Shown: piece by piece, positions 9,062 to 35,155 of the stretch
How the letters are laid out: every line of letters begins with the position of its first letter
Numbering within the stretch: the stretch's first letter is position 1
Origin: Spirochaetaceae bacterium
Lineage (GTDB): Bacteria; Spirochaetota; Spirochaetia; DSM-27196; SLAA01
Direction: 5' to 3'
DNA: 37,082 nucleotides
NCBI GenBank assembly: GCA_003552985.1
Contig: PUPD01000009.1
Location: 1-37,082 of the forward strand
The notes under the pieces: generated by a model
Databases searched by the model: none
The model's input: the letters and a program-made list of their open reading frames with translations, nothing else
What the model was told of the DNA's origin: nothing
Made by a program: the position numbers and the translations under genes

Positions 9062-10231
9062 TCAAGGCCTCATAACAGGCCATCCCGCTTTGAGAAATGT
9101 CGGGATCGGGACGGTAGACATGAGTTTTATGTTTTCCCACACACCGTCTACCTCGTCGAGGAAGCGAAACATACGGGTTACCGGATTGCGATCGAACAGG
9201 CGGACGAAGACGTGTTCTGCCAGATCACCGCGATCAAGCAGTACCTGCAGTAGTATGGAGTCGAAGCGATGATACCTTGGTGGTGTCACGGGCAGATCAA
9301 ATGGCCCACCGGTGCGTCGAAGCGAGTCGGTAATTGCCTCGGCGTCCCACTGCATGCGCATGAACGCGTAACCGGTTGACGCTTTGACCCGGCCTCCGAG
9401 CGTTCCGATGCGAAGGATGTGAGCACCGCCACGCCGTTCGAACGGCTGGTCCGTCATGGGAATTATGCACGCCTCTTCAGCAGCCACCTCGTATTCGGTG
9501 ATACCGAGAACCCCTTGAATGTAGTCGGCAATTCGCCGATCATACTCCTCCGGAGGCAGGGTTTCAGGACTGAACAGTGTGTACTCCACTAGGGCTTCGC
9601 GCGGGCTCCAAGGCAGCAGATAGAAGAAACGCATAACACCGTGCTGGGGGGTGCGGAAATCGAACATGCGCGCGACATCCGTGTTGAACACGTCTGTATT
9701 GGTGCGGATTTCCACTCCCTTGAAATGCTGCTTCAGATTCCGGTATCGAGATTCGTTAACCACCAGATTCTGATATTTCCAACGACTGTCGAACACCCAT
9801 TTTCCCGCGTATACAACATCGTCGACCAGCACCTCCGCTCCGGAGTCGGTGTCTTTGACAGAGTCTACGCGCGCAGTCAGAAACTCAACATTAGGACAGC
9901 GTGACAGGCGCTCCTTCACGAAGCGATAGAAGTCTTCGGAACGCAGCATCTGATAGCGATACGGTTCTATCGGCAGCATCAGATCCTTGCCGTCTCCGAT
10001 AATCCGCAGTTTATCCCAGCTTGCGTGCGCCACCGAATCGTACGGAGTGGGTCCTTTTACCCAGTAACACCATGTCCGGTCGTTATCACGCTTTTCTTCC
10101 TCGTCGATAATGAGCATGGAGGACTGGTCGAAACCTGCCGCGACTAAGTGATAGGCAAGACTCAGAGCGGCACCTCCGCCTCCGGCAAAGAGAAAGTCAT
10201 ACCGTCGGGGACCATCCCTTCCAATCGACAT
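9062..10231 (-). CDS. Lycopene cyclase family protein (CrtY/CrtL-b-like)
   Basis: YDFLFAGGGGAALSLAYHLVAAG dinucleotide motif; DNDRTWCYW; QHFKGVEIRT; EALVEYTLFSPE; GGRVKASTGYAF; typical lycopene beta-cyclase signatures. Confidence 0.85.
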   Translation of the reverse strand: MSIGRDGPRRYDFLFAGGGGAALSLAYHLVAAGFDQSSMLIIDEEEKRDNDRTWCYWVKGPTPYDSVAHASWDKLRIIGDGKDLMLPIEPYRYQMLRSEDFYRFVKERLSRCPNVEFLTARVDSVKDTDSGAEVLVDDVVYAGKWVFDSRWKYQNLVVNESRYRNLKQHFKGVEIRTNTDVFNTDVARMFDFRTPQHGVMRFFYLLPWSPREALVEYTLFSPETLPPEEYDRRIADYIQGVLGITEYEVAAEEACIIPMTDQPFERRGGAHILRIGTLGGRVKASTGYAFMRMQWDAEAITDSLRRTGGPFDLPVTPPRYHRFDSILLQVLLDRGDLAEHVFVRLFDRNPVTRMFRFLDEVDGVWENIKLMSTVPIPTFLKAGWPVMRP

Positions 10232-10419: not shown

Positions 10420-11079
10420 TCAAGGATATATCTCGCCTGAAAACCAAGTAGAAGCCTCCACCCACTCACCACGAGTCGCGCCCCCACCTTGATTAACTTT
10501 GAAGTGCCTGTCATAAACTGTTTCAGTCCAGCGAAAAGGACCCCGACCTCTCCTTATTGTTCGCTTTCTCCATCTGTAACCATAAGCCACAGCATAGTGT
10601 CGAAGCCAACCTATACCAATAATTGCCGGTGTCTTCCGATCTCTAATGGAATTCCTGACTTTTTGTCTGAACTCAGTTCGACTTCTACCGGTGTTACTAT
10701 AGTATACTTCTACTTTTGCGCTCGTCCTTCTGGACAAATACCTCTGTGCTCGATCCATTCTTCTGGGAAGAGTAGCTCCTTGTCCTCGTGGCACGCAAAA
10801 GGTCCCCACATAATCTCGTATTTCCCGGATCATGTTGCGGACACCTTCATCCATATTCCGAGGAGCTATCGCATTAGCACCGGTTCCACCATTTTCCCGA
10901 TAAATGTCCCCTCTGCCTCTCCAGTATGGATTTCCCTGTTCAGCCTGTATGTCTGCCCAGCCGAAGAGTATACCCCACGCAACTGGACCACAACCAACGG
11001 CACAACCGTTGTAATGAAACTGATGATACCTTGGCTGATCGTTATAAGTTCCTGCAGCCCAATAAACGGTCCAACTCAT
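10420..11079 (-). CDS. Papain/C39-like cysteine protease-fold protein
   Basis: NGCAVGCGPVAWGILFGWAD (Cys), PAIIGIGWLRHYAVAYGYR (His161), YDRHFKVNQGG (Asn196): Cys-His-Asn order of papain-like peptidases; no signal peptide. Confidence 0.65.
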   Translation of the reverse strand: MSWTVYWAAGTYNDQPRYHQFHYNGCAVGCGPVAWGILFGWADIQAEQGNPYWRGRGDIYRENGGTGANAIAPRNMDEGVRNMIREIRDYVGTFCVPRGQGATLPRRMDRAQRYLSRRTSAKVEVYYSNTGRSRTEFRQKVRNSIRDRKTPAIIGIGWLRHYAVAYGYRWRKRTIRRGRGPFRWTETVYDRHFKVNQGGGATRGEWVEASTWFSGEIYP

Positions 11080-11081
11080 AA

Positions 11082-12203
11082 CTATTCCTCCTCGCTTAAA
11101 TCGATTCTAGGAAATTCTGTTGGTGTAGTCCGATTCACAACGAACAGCTCAACCTTTTCCTGACAGTCTTTGCCGTAATACAACGTCACAGTAAGATCGC
11201 TCTCCCGATCGAACGGTAACTCTCGCGTAGCGATTTCAATGACCGAAAATCCCCCGGGTCTTTTTGCGACTCTAACTCTGACATAATCAACTGCTTCCCC
11301 GCTCAATTGAAAAGTGAACTCTCGTTCCAACGACACTAGATTGAAAACGTCACCTGCAATAATGCCTTCACCCATTTCCTCCAACATTGATTGCTTCTTC
11401 CATACTTCTGAGGTACTTCTCCTTAAATCATCAAGAAGTGGCTTAAACGAATTTTTGAACTCTTCTTTGACCTGTTTCCAAACGCAAGTTGTGAACGATA
11501 TATCCAGAGGTTTCGGGCCTCTTCTTATTGTTCTTCCTGCGCGTATTCTATGCGTGTCGTCTAGTTGACGGGTTTGTAAATCCCTGATCTCTGTAATGGA
11601 GGAACTAATTCCTCTATCGGATTCAATAAGATCTTCAGGTAAACCCTTCAGTACAGATGGCATTTCACCTAAATGGTTTACCTCATCAAGATTAGCATCT
11701 TCTCCTAAATATGCCATTGAATTTATTTTATAAATTGTTTCAAGAGTCTTTTTTTCGCGCGCAGCATCTTGCTCAAGGATCAAACTTGGCGGCAGCTTCT
11801 CAAAGCTCCAATGAGATATCGGAAAATCATGATCATTAGTTGCAACCATAATGAAACCTTGAATATTGTTGTTAACCAAAAAGGCGAGTTCATCATTCAA
11901 AAAATCTCTTGATGCATTCGGTGTGGAATAAATGGGGTTATGCCCGGTCTCAGAGAAGAGATTGAATTTTTTCACATTCTGGACCAGATCATATCTGTTA
12001 TCAACATTCTCTCTGGTCGCCTTTAGTACCTGGAATTCATAATACGCAACTCCTTCTATATCCGGTCTGTATATCTCGCAGACATCGTCACCCAAATATA
12101 AATCTGCTGTGTTAATGCCTATTTCACTGCCACGAATGGACTCTAAGTGTTCGGCTGCAATCCGTCGAAATCTTAGAGGTACATCTCTTTGCTTACGCTT
12201 CAT
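11082..12203 (-). CDS. Hypothetical protein (373 aa), unknown family, no signal peptide
   Basis: Long ORF whose stop lies 2 bp from the next gene's start (11082 vs 11079), consistent with co-transcription; no recognisable domain. Confidence 0.75.
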   Translation of the reverse strand: MKRKQRDVPLRFRRIAAEHLESIRGSEIGINTADLYLGDDVCEIYRPDIEGVAYYEFQVLKATRENVDNRYDLVQNVKKFNLFSETGHNPIYSTPNASRDFLNDELAFLVNNNIQGFIMVATNDHDFPISHWSFEKLPPSLILEQDAAREKKTLETIYKINSMAYLGEDANLDEVNHLGEMPSVLKGLPEDLIESDRGISSSITEIRDLQTRQLDDTHRIRAGRTIRRGPKPLDISFTTCVWKQVKEEFKNSFKPLLDDLRRSTSEVWKKQSMLEEMGEGIIAGDVFNLVSLEREFTFQLSGEAVDYVRVRVAKRPGGFSVIEIATRELPFDRESDLTVTLYYGKDCQEKVELFVVNRTTPTEFPRIDLSEEE

Positions 12204-12393
12204 TTTTGACTCCTTCTCTCAAATTCCATCAAACCGGAATTGCCTGATCACAATTTATCTGCGGCCTGAGCAGGGCTGGTGGGGGCGGCTGCAGTCGCTG
12301 CGGGTGCGTCGGCTGCAACCCTTTGCTAGACGATCGTGTTGGAGAGGGAGCAGACTTAATGTGCCCCCTCATCTAACCTTTACGAACTCAACC

Positions 12394-14628
12394 TCAGAGG
12401 TTCTCGGCGTCCGCCTCGATCTGATCAAGAACGGATTGGTTAACACCTCGCTTCTTCAGGTTCTGGACAAGTGTACGCAGCTCTTTCTTGGCATCAGCCT
12501 TTTCGCCCATAGCCAGCATCAGATTGGCCCTCGTGCGGCATAACTCATGGTAGCCGATGTTTGTAAATGTAGTCTCGTCGCGCTTCTGCTGTTCAGCCGC
12601 ACGAGCAGTAAGAGCTAGAGCATCCGTCGGTGAAGAGGAGCGCGTTTTTGCCAGCTTTCCCTTCTCAATGTGAAAGAACGGTCGTTCAAGATTATGGGCT
12701 AACACCAAGCAAATTTGCGCTCCGGCGGCTGTTTGCTGGTAGCGATCAGCTACGGCCTCGAGAGTATCCATTCCCTTCTTGAGGAAGGCTGAACTTGATC
12801 CGCCAAGATAGAGGGACATACCAGTCTCATAGCTGAAGAAGTCCTGGGCAATACGCTCCTCATCTCGCGAGAAGGGCCGGCCGACGCGTACGCGATGGAT
12901 GTTTGAGGGAATCAAGACATCACCGACGCCCTGATACACCGCTCGTACCAAGTACTCACCGGGTTCGTCGAAGTTAAAACCAGAGCCACCATAGCTAAGG
13001 AAGACATGTTCACTGTAACGATCTGGCCCCTGAGTGGCCTCGCTTCTGGGCTGCAGGGTCTGAATGTCAGGAGTACCGAGTTTGCAAAAAACGGGAGCAT
13101 GTTCCGCGATCCGACCGTCAGGGCGTTGGATGTAGACAATAACTCCGCCATACTCGGGATTGAGTCGAGTATCCAGGTCAAGGGGTAGATCACTGAGACA
13201 GTTTCTCAGTCTAAACTCAACTACAACCGGCTCCATGAACTCAAAGAATTCTTTGGACCGTAGCAGAAACTCGATAGGTGCGTCGCCCACTAGTTGAGCA
13301 AATGCTCCTGAAGAATCCTCCAGATGTCCGCCTGAAGCCCAAGGATCACCGCCCATAATGACCGATGCGCGGTCTCCGTGGCGAAGATGAATCAATTCCT
13401 CGTTATCGAAACGGAATCTGAAATTGCTCCAAAAGCTTCCAGCTCCGTTGCGATTGTCGTATCGCCATGGATAGTTCATCCAAGACAGGCTGTCGGGTCG
13501 GTTCTTATTCCAGGAATGCAACAAGTTGAACGCATGGCCGGCTTCGTGTACCCAAGTATACAGGTAGTCACGCATTGCTCCGGCTTGATTCTGGTTTGCT
13601 GGTACTCCCTCTACAAGGTTGTTAAACCACACGTGGTTACGAAAAACGGCAAATCCTTGGCGATCTGGTGGTTCGCCTGCACCTCCATATGCTGCAGCGG
13701 CGTCGAACATGATTCCGGCTACACCTGCGCTTTCGAATCTTCCCGCCAGCAATCCCCACATCTGCCACTTTGGCCATGTACCAGGATATTGACTGAAATG
13801 CGTTTCCATAGCGTCATGCAACTCAGCGACCGACCAACTACTGAATTCAGGCGCACTATCATCAATGATGGTGCGGTCGGGACGAATTGATGCAGATATG
13901 CCTGCTTCCCGAAATGACTCCTCGATCGTCAGAACTCGTTGGGGGAGATCAGCCGGCCGAGTATTATGCCAATGCGTGTCGTAACTCGGAAGAACTGGCT
14001 CTGAATTGACTGACTGACAGACATCAACCTCAAGGGTCATGTCACGGACGCAGTCGGATTTTCTGGCGCAGCTGTAGCTTGAAGTGTCACCACCGGCTTC
14101 TGTAAAAGTGACCTCCGCAGGCCCAGCAGGCGTGGAGGCTCCCCAACGGATTCGTACCCTAATGTTGGTTGTTGGATGGACACCCTTCCAGAACCGGACC
14201 GTACCGGTTATATCCACGTGACACCGTGACCAGTTTGCCTGCGGCCTATCCACAATCCACGATTCCCGGTATACCCTCCACATGATGGGCGGTCTACCCG
14301 GTAAAGCAAATCGATACACTTGGTAGAAATCACCGCTGATGCGATCTATGACAGGCGAATTTACATAGCGCGGGTCAATATCCATCCGTAAGTCCAGGGC
14401 ATAGCGCCCGGCGGTCGGTACCGTCATTTCGCCTTCGTAGCGACCACTGACTGGTCCTAAGCGCAGACAGCGCCACCAGTCCGGGGGCCGCGGGATAGGT
14501 TCTGGGTCGGGTAGAGGCCAGGGGAAGGGTTCGGGTCTTGGAAAGGGACCTGGAAATGGCTCCGGTATCGGCCGGGGGAACGGACCAGGGATAGGTTCTG
14601 GATTAGGTGTGAGTTCTGTGTCACTCAT
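12394..14628 (-). CDS. Metzincin-like zinc metalloprotease with N-terminal proline-rich repeats and alpha-helical C-terminal region
   Basis: WVHEAGHAFNLLHSW (HExxHxxNxxH) followed by SLSWMNYPW (Met-turn-like); N-terminus PNPEPIPGPFPRPIPEPFPGPFPRPEPFPWPLPDPEPIPRPP; lacks a signal peptide. Confidence 0.85.
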   Translation of the reverse strand: MSDTELTPNPEPIPGPFPRPIPEPFPGPFPRPEPFPWPLPDPEPIPRPPDWWRCLRLGPVSGRYEGEMTVPTAGRYALDLRMDIDPRYVNSPVIDRISGDFYQVYRFALPGRPPIMWRVYRESWIVDRPQANWSRCHVDITGTVRFWKGVHPTTNIRVRIRWGASTPAGPAEVTFTEAGGDTSSYSCARKSDCVRDMTLEVDVCQSVNSEPVLPSYDTHWHNTRPADLPQRVLTIEESFREAGISASIRPDRTIIDDSAPEFSSWSVAELHDAMETHFSQYPGTWPKWQMWGLLAGRFESAGVAGIMFDAAAAYGGAGEPPDRQGFAVFRNHVWFNNLVEGVPANQNQAGAMRDYLYTWVHEAGHAFNLLHSWNKNRPDSLSWMNYPWRYDNRNGAGSFWSNFRFRFDNEELIHLRHGDRASVIMGGDPWASGGHLEDSSGAFAQLVGDAPIEFLLRSKEFFEFMEPVVVEFRLRNCLSDLPLDLDTRLNPEYGGVIVYIQRPDGRIAEHAPVFCKLGTPDIQTLQPRSEATQGPDRYSEHVFLSYGGSGFNFDEPGEYLVRAVYQGVGDVLIPSNIHRVRVGRPFSRDEERIAQDFFSYETGMSLYLGGSSSAFLKKGMDTLEAVADRYQQTAAGAQICLVLAHNLERPFFHIEKGKLAKTRSSSPTDALALTARAAEQQKRDETTFTNIGYHELCRTRANLMLAMGEKADAKKELRTLVQNLKKRGVNQSVLDQIEADAENL
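13516..13548 (-). other. Zinc-binding HEAGHAFNLLH motif
   Basis: Reverse complement CAC GAA GCC GGC CAT GCG TTC AAC TTG TTG CAT. Confidence 0.85.
14478..14607 (-). repeat. Short proline-rich tandem repeat region (PxP / PFPxP) within the metalloprotease N-terminus
   Basis: Translated PEPIPGPFPRPIPEPFPGPFPRPEPFPWPLPDPEPIPRP; approximate bounds. Confidence 0.75.
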
Positions 14629-14780
14629 TTTAGAAGCTCCTTACTAATTGAGTTTGGGTCTTACTGTCGTGTTGATTGCAGGGCTCATAGATACGCTGCC
14701 TTGATACGCATCACCTCCCTTTAAAGAGTTTCGCCGACGCATCGATTGAGCCGATGCACCGATTGAGTTATTGAATGGGC

Positions 14781-15080
14781 TCACATGTAACCGAACGGCT
14801 CATCAGAAACGACATACTCGATCCTGCCGTTAACTACTGAAATGCCGAGGTGAGTATCAGCAGAGATTTCAAAGGGAATGGTGATCGCAATATCGCGTGT
14901 CTGTATCATAATCTCAATAACAACTTGACCGGCTTCTACCGTGGTCTTGAGCGCCTCGGCTTTTCCTAACAGCAGCTTCGTGCTTACGTCCTCTTTGCGA
15001 AAGACTTCTTCGCCGTTAATTCGTAGACTTACGGTGTCATTCGCAAAACCTTCTTGAAAGTCGATAGATAGAGTCACCAT
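14781..15080 (-). CDS. Small (99 aa) beta-rich protein of unknown function
   Basis: MVTLSIDFQEGFANDTVSLRINGEEVFRKEDVSTKLLLG...EPFGYM; ATG at 15080 with strong SD aaggaggagat; first gene of the minus-strand cluster. Confidence 0.75.
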   Translation of the reverse strand: MVTLSIDFQEGFANDTVSLRINGEEVFRKEDVSTKLLLGKAEALKTTVEAGQVVIEIMIQTRDIAITIPFEISADTHLGISVVNGRIEYVVSDEPFGYM

Positions 15081-16624
15081 ATCTCCTCCTTCAGTCTTAA
15101 TAGGCGAGGGTGCTTTAGTGACGCTTTCCCTAAAGCCTACCAACAGAACGACACACAGCGCCACCAAACCCAATGAGGTGGTCGGTCCTTTCAGTGATAA
15201 TGGCGTCAGGCCCGGTGATTCTGCCTGCCCTTTTTGCGACGGTCGAGGCAACGTGTGCCGACGACAAACGCGCTAATAGGAATCGGGAGACAATCTATTG
15301 GCTCGTCGGCGCTTACGATACCCTGTACCCTGTACAGCGGCTGCGCAGAGCAGCATGGCGACACGCGCACCTTCGGCCATGAGCGTACCCGTGTGAACGT
15401 CGGGCGCTCCCGTGAGCCTGCGGCGTCACTCCCATGTCATCGCCCACCGACAAGGGCTCACCGTTCAGTGATAAGTGCGCAATCGTCGTCTCGAGTGTTC
15501 CAAAGCTCCAACCAGGCATGGAGCTGCCGATCGGCGTCAGCTCAATACGAAAAAAACTGGTATACCCGAATCTGTGTCCGTGACGACTGAGCGAAGCTTC
15601 AACTCAGGATGTACCAAGATAGGTATGAACTGCAGGCGCAGCGGTTGCTCGTTCACCACGCCGGTCTTGGAGAGCGTGCCGGTATCCCCGGGGATCAGCC
15701 GTGACGTCCCTCATAGTTCACAGATGACGGCTTCACTCCGATGAGATTGATTACACCCGCACTCCGGATCTCGGGGCCTTCGCCTGCAGTCCGAGTCGCA
15801 GGGTGGTGCTGTCTTTCTGGTCTGCTTGAGTCGACGTTGCGGGCACTAGATCTGCGATGATAGTTGGGATATATACGGTGTCTGCTTTCCGCTCGATTGT
15901 CACTCTTAGCTTAGGGGCGAAATCACGGGCCGTCCGGTATCAACAGTAATCGGTGTTGCCCGGCCGGTGGAGCGAGGCTGGAGGCCTGAGACGGTGCATG
16001 TCGCGCGCTCCGCCGAGACACCGGCCGAAACTCGGATGCTTGCGAGAGTGCGGTCCTGCCGGCGGCTATTCGTGCTCACACTCTGGGCTACCGTAACACC
16101 GGCCACGCGCCAGAGCCGGCGCCGGCGAACCGCACCGATTGCATCCGCACCTGGTGCGATCCGCTGGTTCGCGCTCGATGGCCTTTTAGATTTTACTACC
16201 GTTTTCGCGCGACTGGGGGAAAATATCTAGGATCCGCTACGTTTTCCGGCGATGCGAGCCTGTACCACTGTACAAAAGTCTATCTGTTTGGGAGGCGCTA
16301 CTGCCACTAACGAGCGCGGCGGAGGCCGTCTGATCTTGATCCGATCTGGAAGGATGCGCTTGGTTTCGGGCAGACGAAAGGATCGAGCTCGTACACCTTC
16401 GCAAGTATACGGGCCACGCACGTTCGCGGAATCTGCAAAGTGATCTGCTTTTCTCCGCGTCACGATCTCACAATTCTTTTCCTCGCCGGCTGGGAGCGGT
16501 ATGTGGCCAGAGTCATCCATGCCGGATACGGCAGGGTGAGAAGCGGGTGAGAAGCGTTCCGATTGCAGTAGTCCGAGTAGGTGGTCTGAAAGAGCATATC
16601 TTCCCGAGCTGCAGCAGCATGATA

Positions 16625-18480: not shown

Positions 18481-18909
18481 ATGAAAAGAACAACGAAGAA
18501 TATGAACTACGAGATACAGAAGAGCGATGACGAATGGAAGCGCCAGCTCTCCCCGGAAGAGTATCGTGTGTTGCGTCGGGCAGGGACCGAGCGTGCCTTT
18601 ACCGGCAAATACCATGACAGTAAGGACGATGGAGTCTATGTCTGTGCGGGATGCGGGAATCCGCTCTTCGACTCGAACACCAAATACGATTCCGGAACTG
18701 GATGGCCGAGCTACTATGAACCCATTGCCCCGGATGCAGTCGTCGAATATGAGGACCGGAGCATGTTATTTGTGCGCACCGAGGTATGCTGCAGCAAGTG
18801 TGGGGGACACTTGGGGCACGTGTTTACCGATGGCCCACAGCCCACCGGATTGCGCTATTGTATGAACTCGGCGGCCGTGCGTCTGAAACCGCGCGGAGAA
18901 CAGGGTTAG
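18481..18909 (+). CDS. msrB: Peptide-methionine (R)-S-oxide reductase MsrB
   Basis: [63 protein letters not shown] (zinc CxxC pairs and catalytic Cys). Confidence 0.95.
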
Positions 18910-20310
18910 ATGGATTCCAGCATGCGAAACAGTGAAGCGGTACCCCGGGCTGTGCAGATTGCTAGGGACGCGTTTGTGTCCCAGCAATCGGTGTCAGAGA
19001 CCCAAAAAGGACCGGATGCTCTGAGGCGCCTTTCGAGAGCCGTCAGGGAGCATGAGAACGAGATTGTGAGCGCCCTGCAGGCCGATTTCGGAAAACCTGA
19101 ACTAGAGTCGTTAGCCTCCGAGTTGTCAGTGTTTTATCAGGAGGTGCGCGAGCTTAAGAGATGTCTCAAGCGGTTTTTTCGTCCGCAAAGGCGTCCCACG
19201 CCCCAAGCGTTCTTCCGGTCGACAAGTACGGTGTACCGCGAACCATTCGGCACGGTCTTAGTGATTGCACCATGGAATTACCCGTTCCAGCTGTCTGTTG
19301 TGCCGGTTGCGGGTGCTCTGGCTGCCGGGAACAGCGTAGTTCTGAAACCATCGGAGCTCGCCTCGAACGTGGCAGGGGTTCTGGAAAAAATCCTGCATTC
19401 AGCCTTTCCGGAAGGGCTCGCGCGAGTCGTACAGGGAGATAAGCAGGTTGTACAAGAGCTTCTGAGCCATCGTTTTGATCACATTTTCTACACCGGTAAT
19501 TCCGTAGTGGGAAAAACGATTATGAAGTCCGCCGCCGAACAGCTGACCCCAGTTACCCTGGAGCTTGGTGGCAAAAACCCTGCGGTCGTAACGGCCAAAG
19601 CTGACATGCGGGTGGCGGCTCAACGGATTGCTTGGGGGAAAGCCTTTAATGCCGGTCAGACCTGTGTTGCGCCTGATTACGTGCTTGTGGATGGAGCTGT
19701 TCACGATGAGTTCGTAGGGGAGTTGAGAGCCGCCTTTGTCCGGATGTATGGAGAGAAGCCACTGAACAGCGCGGATATGGCTCGAATCATCAACGATCGT
19801 CACTTCAATCGGTTGAAAGCGCTTCTCGACGGTACCCAGGGAGTAATATGGGGCGGCTCGTGTGACCCGCGCACCCGGGCGATTTCCCCGGCGGTCGTGA
19901 CCGATCTCTCTTGGGACGATCAACTCATGAAGGAAGAGATCTTCGGTCCGCTGTTACCCATTCTTCGTTACCAGTCGCGCCGGGAGCTTGTCGAACGGGT
20001 GAATAGCCGGTCCCGCCCGCTTGCCGTTTACGTGTTCAGCACCAGCAATACTGAAGCGAGGCAGCTGTTCGCCGATCTGCCCAGTGGCGGCGGATGCATA
20101 AACGATGTAGTCCTGCAGGTAGCCTCATCATCCCTCCCGTTCGGCGGGGTGGGTGAGAGCGGATTCGGCCGATATCGTGGACTCTACAGCCTCAGAGCGT
20201 TTACCTACGAGCGGGCACTCGTGAACCACCGAATATGGCCCGAGTTACGGCTTCGGTATCCGCCTTACGAAGGTAAGCTTAGGCTAATGAGATGGCTGCT
20301 CGGTAGTTAG
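18910..20310 (+). CDS. Aldehyde dehydrogenase, ALDH3-like
   Basis: FGTVLVIAPWNYPFQLSVVPVAGALAAGNSVVLKPSE, FYTGNSVVGKTIMKSAAEQLTPVTLELGGKNPAVV, FNAGQTCVAPDYVLV. Confidence 0.93.
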   Translation: MDSSMRNSEAVPRAVQIARDAFVSQQSVSETQKGPDALRRLSRAVREHENEIVSALQADFGKPELESLASELSVFYQEVRELKRCLKRFFRPQRRPTPQAFFRSTSTVYREPFGTVLVIAPWNYPFQLSVVPVAGALAAGNSVVLKPSELASNVAGVLEKILHSAFPEGLARVVQGDKQVVQELLSHRFDHIFYTGNSVVGKTIMKSAAEQLTPVTLELGGKNPAVVTAKADMRVAAQRIAWGKAFNAGQTCVAPDYVLVDGAVHDEFVGELRAAFVRMYGEKPLNSADMARIINDRHFNRLKALLDGTQGVIWGGSCDPRTRAISPAVVTDLSWDDQLMKEEIFGPLLPILRYQSRRELVERVNSRSRPLAVYVFSTSNTEARQLFADLPSGGGCINDVVLQVASSSLPFGGVGESGFGRYRGLYSLRAFTYERALVNHRIWPELRLRYPPYEGKLRLMRWLLGS

Positions 20311-34533: not shown

Positions 34534-35155
34534 CGCCTCACCGAGTTGCTGGTGAGCGCGAACTACCTCGGGGTGCGCAGCGTTGAACGGCCGGCGGGGT
34601 ACCGCAACTTCGTTGTCGGATTCCCCGGAAGAAATGCTCTAACCGGGCCGCTCTGTGCCACCTGACGCTAAACCTACGCAAGCGCGAGAAGAGCTGCAAA
34701 AGAAGCACAGCCGACAAGCGCTTGCTCGCCGGCTGGGATGAGCGCTACCTGGAGAAGGTGCGGTTCGGCCCCTGAGTTCCCAATGCGTGTGCCCTACTTC
34801 CGGCATGCGAATTGTCTGAGCTCTTACCGTCCGAAAGAGCACCGGCTGTCGCGATCACATATGAAGGCAGACGGCGAGACGGTGTCACCACTCGCCCATA
34901 GCATCACGGCTAATTGCACTAAACGGCTGCTGCGCTCCGTTGACAACTCCTCGCAACAGTAGTAATACTATCGCGATCCATTGTGAGGCGCGGCCATGAG
35001 GGCCGGTCGGCTATCCTGCCGCGGACCTCTGCGTCTATGGGCTTCGCTACTCACGGCGATGGAGCTCGCCTACCGCGCGTATGTCGCTGATGGCTCCTAT
35101 CACATAGTGTGCTTTTCTTGACTCAGTGTCTTGCAGCCGCTTGAGGAGTGTGACG

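What the first reader, a model, noticed from the sequence alone, without database searches (positions are those of the whole stretch)
10420..15080. Four-gene minus-strand cluster combining two unrelated protease folds with two unknown proteins, all apparently cytosolic
Seen: co-oriented genes in the order 99-aa beta-rich protein, proline-repeat metzincin-like protease, 373-aa unknown and C39/papain-like cysteine protease. The last two are 2 bp apart. None begins with a recognisable signal peptide. Established: HExxHxxNxxH plus a Met-turn is metzincin-like, and Cys-His-Asn order is papain-like. Inference: this is a functional unit, such as a protease-based effector/immunity, non-classically exported effector or proteolytic defence module. 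It lies next to a decayed defence patch and matches no operon I know. It is the best candidate here for an undescribed system.
Basis: partly seen in the sequence, partly recalled or inferred. Interest (0 to 1): 0.78.

Follow-up and report, generated by a model that had tools for sequence, protein, structure and literature searches.

The report
Metzincin-like protease with dedicated small partner
Two of the four neighbouring genes form a rare, uncharacterised pair that recurs across distant bacteria, a zinc protease plus a 99-residue partner that may hold it in check, while the other two genes look like a separate local addition.

Summary
The four minus-strand ORFs are real, but they are not one four-gene unit. 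Relatives of the 744-aa metzincin-like protein occur in Alpha- and Gammaproteobacteria, Gemmatimonadales and two Actinomycetota lineages. All keep HExxHxxNxxH and a W/F-MNY Met-turn. In 8 of 10 close relatives, and in one relative at about 30% identity, a homologue of the 99-aa protein lies beside it, upstream in most and downstream in three. In whole-genome and plasmid searches the 99-aa family was found once per genome, always next to the protease, and no orphan copy was seen. The 373-aa and 219-aa proteins have no homologue in any of these loci and none in the further genomes sampled. Their GC3 (0.38-0.39) differs from that of the pair (0.49-0.53). So the conserved unit is a two-gene cassette; the 373/219 pair is a separate, composition-distinct, apparently translationally coupled module. 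The 99-aa partner is predicted with high confidence (pLDDT 93.7) to be an 8-stranded beta sandwich with a conserved C-terminal tail. The most likely mechanism is that it is a dedicated inhibitor or antidote, as Inh/AprI is for serralysins, but it is not an Inh family member. Inhibition is inferred, not shown.

The parts
14781..15080 (-). 99-aa partner protein, beta-sandwich, conserved C-terminal tail EPFGYM
   Evidence: SD at 15085-15090; family in 9 other loci beside the protease; AF2 pLDDT 93.7
15085..15090 (-). Shine-Dalgarno AGGAGG that fixes the 99-aa start
   Evidence: sequence
12394..14628 (-). 744-aa metzincin-like zinc protease: Pro-rich tail, N-terminal beta domain, catalytic region, Ig-like domain, C-terminal helical domain
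   Evidence: homologues at 45-56% identity; domain layout from a low-confidence AF2 model
14479..14607 (-). proline-rich N-terminal tail, residues 8-50; length and sequence vary between homologues
   Evidence: alignment A2; pLDDT below 50 for residues 1-53
13516..13548 (-). zinc-binding motif HEAGHAFNLLH, residues 361-371
   Evidence: kept in all homologues covering it
13471..13482 (-). Met-turn WMNY, residues 383-386
   Evidence: kept as W/F-MNY in all homologues covering it
11082..12203 (-). 373-aa protein of unknown family; separate module with the 219-aa gene
   Evidence: no homologue found; GC3 0.38
10420..11079 (-). 219-aa putative papain/C39-like cysteine protease (C30, H161, N196)
   Evidence: motif only; GC3 0.39; one degenerate Rhizobium fragment resembles its N-terminal part
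11085..11093 (-). Shine-Dalgarno of the 219-aa gene inside the 3' end of the 373-aa gene, suggesting translational coupling
   Evidence: sequence

Best explanation
The conserved unit is a two-gene cassette: a metzincin-like zinc endopeptidase without a signal peptide, and a dedicated 99-aa beta-sandwich protein. The small protein most likely binds the protease and keeps it inactive inside the producing cell, probably through its conserved C-terminal tail (typically P-[FL]-G-[FY]-x at the very C-terminus), until the protease is released by lysis or an unidentified route. Shown: the pair, its exclusivity in the genomes searched, the conserved active site, the partner's predicted fold and its faster evolution. 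Inferred: binding, inhibition, the role of the tail, and release. The adjacent 373/219 genes are a second, independent coupled module, possibly a cysteine protease with a propeptide-like or regulatory partner (weak).
For: Partner beside the protease in 8 of 10 close relatives and in one relative at about 30% identity. One copy per genome, always adjacent, in 8 genomes or records. No orphan in 378 other genomes of the phylum of G387 or in plasmids. Both gene orders occur, with gaps of 9-152 nt in eight loci. Protein distance matrices agree (Mantel r 0.56, p 0.0005) and the partner diverges faster. dN/dS of the partner is 0.17-0.40, so it is a real gene under purifying selection. Catalytic motif invariant. 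8-strand fold, pLDDT 93.7. Precedent: Inh, a 10 kDa eight-stranded protein encoded beside serralysin-type proteases, blocks the active site with a terminal tail (PMC3034196). GC3 separates the two modules.
Against: The Halomonas and Nitriliruptorales relatives have the protease with no partner found in their genomes, so the partner is not strictly required. Distant relatives (Embleya, Nonomuraea, Methylobacterium) showed none either. The partner's fold search gives only generic beta-sandwiches with no PDB match at E below 0.001, and it has no Pfam match, Inh included. In Arthrobacter an antisense CBS-domain gene lies between the two. No export system was recognised at these loci. Inhibition itself was not testable.
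Confidence: 0.5

Rival explanations
1. The 99-aa protein is a positive partner of the protease: a chaperone, targeting or substrate-recognition subunit, or an activator, rather than an inhibitor.
For: Strict pairing and either gene order are equally expected; the protease carries extra beta and helical domains of binding type; some relatives do without the partner.
Against: Faster divergence of the partner and its conserved C-terminal tail resemble tail-inserting inhibitors more than structural subunits; this is suggestive only.
Confidence: 0.27
2. The 99-aa protein is the specific substrate or cargo of the protease (a matured small beta protein), the pair acting as a processing system.
For: One dedicated small protein per protease; generic beta-sandwich fold; the Microvirga partner has a possible signal peptide if the earlier ATG is used.
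Against: No second processed part: the whole 99 residues fold as one domain with pLDDT near 94 and no cleavable extension is conserved.
Confidence: 0.12
3. All four genes form one functional system, as the first reader proposed (effector/immunity, exported effector or proteolytic defence).
For: Same strand and adjacency in this one contig.
Against: No 373-aa or 219-aa homologue in any of the metzincin loci; different GC3; a 190-nt gap between the modules; no PADLOC match.
Confidence: 0.06
4. For the second module only (not exclusive with the best explanation): the 373-aa and 219-aa genes are a coupled cysteine protease and its separately encoded propeptide-like inhibitor, as Spi is for streptopain.
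For: 2-nt spacing with an internal Shine-Dalgarno, shared GC3 of 0.38-0.39; adjacent protease/inhibitor genes are a known pattern (PMC2873492). A recalled resemblance to fused fungal proteins is a lead only, not tested.
Against: No intact homologue or family match for either protein, so neither protease nor inhibitor identity is supported.
Confidence: 0.3

Closest known systems
Serralysin/alkaline protease with Inh/AprI inhibitor (Inh, PF02974)
   Same: A metzincin-type zinc protease and an adjacent small (about 10-11 kDa) eight-stranded beta protein; gene order varies between species (PMC3034196).
   Different: No signal peptide on this partner (one possible exception, Microvirga), no type I secretion genes or RTX repeats recognised, no Pfam Inh match, partner predicted as a beta sandwich with a conserved C-terminal rather than N-terminal tail.
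Staphopain/staphostatin and Bacteroides Bfp/Bfi pairs
   Same: Protease with an adjacent small all-beta inhibitor gene; staphostatin B controls premature activation in the producing cell's cytoplasm (PMC2873492 and its reference 35).
   Different: Those proteases are secreted cysteine proteases; no sequence relation found.
Tannerella KLIKK proteases with potempins
   Same: Most protease genes are directly preceded by a gene for a small specific inhibitor, and the pairs vary together (PMC7296668).
   Different: Potempins are lipoproteins; here neither protein has a recognisable signal peptide.
Peptidase M66/M12B (StcE, reprolysin-like) metzincins
   Same: HExxHxxxxxH plus Met-turn; weak Pfam hits, M66 at E 0.13 and Reprolysin_4 at E 5e-5 in one homologue.
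   Different: The window protein passes no family cut-off; N at the eighth motif position, no secretion signal, different flanking domains.

Membership tests
Metzincin clan | Zinc motif HExxHxxG/NxxH with third His/Asp ligand | tested here: met
   Conserved in every homologue that covers it; position 8 is N, not the usual G
Metzincin clan | Met-turn below the zinc site | tested here: met
   W/F-MNY 22-34 residues after the motif's first His in all homologues covering it
Metzincin clan | Metzincin catalytic fold | tested here: inconclusive
   AF2 model has pLDDT below 50 over residues 251-449; fold search uninformative
Inh/AprI inhibitor family (PF02974) | Sequence match to the family | tested here: not met
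   No Inh match at E<=1 for the window protein or any of the nine aligned family members
Inh/AprI inhibitor family (PF02974) | Encoded beside a metzincin-type protease | tested here: met
Inh/AprI inhibitor family (PF02974) | Sec signal peptide and periplasmic location | tested here: not met
   None in the window protein or eight others; Microvirga ambiguous
Inh/AprI inhibitor family (PF02974) | Blocks the active site | not testable with these tools
   needs an enzyme assay or complex structure
C39/papain-like cysteine protease (219 aa) | Sequence match to a C39, C10 or C1 family | tested here: not met
   No Pfam/NCBIfam match even for sub-fragments
C39/papain-like cysteine protease (219 aa) | Cys-His-Asn order with papain-type contexts | tested here: inconclusive
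   C30 in GCGPVAW, H161 in LRHYAVAYGY, N196 in KVNQGGG present, but no homologue set to show conservation
Known anti-phage defence systems | Match to a PADLOC model | tested here: not met
   none at E<=1

The most novel reading that the evidence does not exclude
The cassette is an intracellular protease/antidote system: a cytosolic metzincin held silent by the 99-aa protein and unleashed by a trigger such as infection or loss of the partner, an undescribed toxin-antidote or abortive defence type spread by horizontal transfer.
Probability: 0.12. Interest if true: 0.75.

Novelty: new variant of a known kind. Interest (0 to 1): 0.42.

Why it matters
If the partner is an inhibitor, this is a new metzincin/inhibitor pair with undescribed families on both sides, present without signal peptides in distant bacteria. 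It raises the question of what a cytosolic or unconventionally exported metzincin is for, and gives a compact, easily tested two-gene system. It also shows how a four-gene guess from one contig can be resolved into two modules by co-occurrence and composition.

Tried and rejected
Longer TTG-started form of the 99-aa gene with an apparent membrane segment: rejected because of the strong SD at the ATG and because the relatives do not share the extension. Four-gene unit: rejected. The two genome hits of the 219-aa protein are chance matches inside unrelated genes. Shared neighbours among the metzincin loci (S1-domain proteins, CBS proteins) are different housekeeping genes, not a conserved context. 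AF2 of the protease with nine sequences failed in the catalytic region, and its fold search was uninformative, mostly Ig-like matches. Phage and viral collections: no relatives of the queries tried there. Synteny to date the insertion: close relatives of the flanking genes lie in unrelated neighbourhoods, so no empty site could be shown. Promoter and terminator scans were at or below chance level.

Full report
What is there. One search confirms four minus-strand ORFs: 99 aa (14781-15080), 744 aa (12394-14628), 373 aa (11082-12203) and 219 aa (10420-11079). The 99-aa start is fixed by AAGGAGGAG just before ATG 15080. The 373/219 genes are 2 nt apart, with the second gene's Shine-Dalgarno inside the end of the first. 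None of the four has an N-terminal hydrophobic stretch typical of a signal peptide. None matches a Pfam, NCBIfam, PHROG or PADLOC model convincingly.

The protease has relatives. tblastn against plasmids found near-full-length homologues in Rhizobium (53%) and Arthrobacter (49%, interrupted reading frame in that record) and distant ones (28-30%) in Nonomuraea, Embleya and Methylobacterium. The genome scan added Microvirga, Chromatiaceae, Ectothiorhodospiraceae, Halomonas, Nitriliruptorales and three Gemmatimonadales at 45-57%. It is rare. Apart from genomes already known to carry it, 2 of about 157 genomes of the Gemmatimonadota class had a match (one only to the C-terminal domains), and 0 of about 198 genomes of the Microvirga order. 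Among 118 relatives of the window's own genome the only hit was to the low-complexity proline tail. Every homologue that covers the site keeps HExxHxxNxxH and a W/F-MNY Met-turn, so an active zinc protease of metzincin type is the natural reading. The fold itself could not be modelled well.

The 99-aa protein is its partner. A homologue lies beside the protease in Rhizobium, Arthrobacter, Microvirga, Chromatiaceae, Ectothiorhodospiraceae and three Gemmatimonadales, and beside a far more divergent Gemmatimonadota protease, 9 nt downstream. It is upstream in seven loci, the window included, and downstream in three. Searching whole genomes or records with the family profile found exactly one copy in each of eight, always at the protease locus. 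A further 378 genomes of the phylum of G387 held no orphan copy. Distances within the two families agree (Mantel r 0.56, p 0.0005); that agreement is expected of co-inheritance and does not prove contact. The partner is under purifying selection but changes faster than the protease. Exceptions: the Halomonas and Nitriliruptorales genomes have the protease but no partner was found in them.

The other two genes are separate. No homologue of the 373-aa or 219-aa protein was found in any protease locus, in 295 other genomes of the window's own phylum, in phages or in viral contigs. The 219-aa protein was also absent from 247 genomes of the phylum of the Nitriliruptorales relative (that empty result had no positive control) and from 249 of the phylum of the Microvirga relative, where two weak hits were chance. 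The 219-aa protein has a degenerate match beside IS630 remnants in a Rhizobium plasmid. Their third-position GC (0.38, 0.39) differs from the pair (0.49, 0.53) and from the other window genes measured (0.58-0.78). The simplest reading is two modules of different origin side by side. The papain/C39 identity of the 219-aa protein rests on motif reading alone.

How it probably works. The partner is predicted with high confidence to be an eight-stranded beta sandwich (pLDDT 93.7), with only generic structural analogues in PDB and in viral proteins. All members end at the same place with a short, similar tail (FGYM, LGFL, IGFL and the like). Known bacterial proteases often come with a small beta inhibitor encoded next door: Inh with serralysins, where an eight-stranded protein inserts a terminal tail into the active site (PMC3034196), staphostatins (PMC2873492) and potempins (PMC7296668). 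By analogy the 99-aa protein most likely restrains its protease in the producing cell. This is inference. An activating or targeting subunit is the main rival and is not excluded.

What it is not. It is not a member of the Inh family by sequence or location, not a known defence system, and not a conserved four-gene operon. It works, probably, like a protease/inhibitor pair. I rate it a new variant of a known kind, of moderate interest because both proteins lack family descriptions and the protease appears to lack a classical export route.

Origin of the contig. The window is a whole contig of a metagenome-assembled genome. Its lycopene cyclase is 78-79% identical to those of another family of the same order, while the genome's own genus carries a different copy at about 50%. 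Its msrB-aldehyde dehydrogenase pair is likewise closest to, and syntenic with, a genome of that other family. The contig may be mis-binned, or these genes were transferred. This does not affect the cassette analysis but bears on any host assignment.

Noticed in passing
window 9062-10231 and 18481-20310: The lycopene cyclase and the msrB-aldehyde dehydrogenase pair are closest to another family of the same order (78-79% and 62%, the latter syntenic), while the MAG's own genus is at or below about 50%. The contig may be mis-binned or its genes transferred.
   Followed up: partly
   Followed up: partly
window 35046-35106: Fluoride riboswitch above Rfam's gathering score, just upstream of a 416-aa ORF at 35126.
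   Followed up: no
L003 625-8511 (Rhizobium plasmid pRL9b4): The protease/partner pair lies beside a LodA_N-type protein and a BNR plus ferritin-like (PF12902) protein, a context not seen in the other loci.
   Followed up: partly
L006 5131-5950 (Embleya): The distant Embleya homologue has an extra N-terminal region that looks hemopexin-like by eye; not confirmed by a search.
   Followed up: no
L009 12266-12350 (Microvirga): An earlier in-frame ATG would give the 99-aa partner a signal-peptide-like N-terminus; start choice unresolved.
   Followed up: partly
L030 335-2379 (Gemmatimonadota class): A separate HEIGHAFNLHH metalloprotease gene is followed by a secreted-looking protein matching only the Ig/helical C-terminal domains, so these domains may also occur as a split, apparently exported version.
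   Followed up: no
L008 4770-5387 (Rhizobium plasmid): Degenerate fragment resembling residues 16-80 of the 219-aa protein beside IS630-like transposase remnants.
   Followed up: partly
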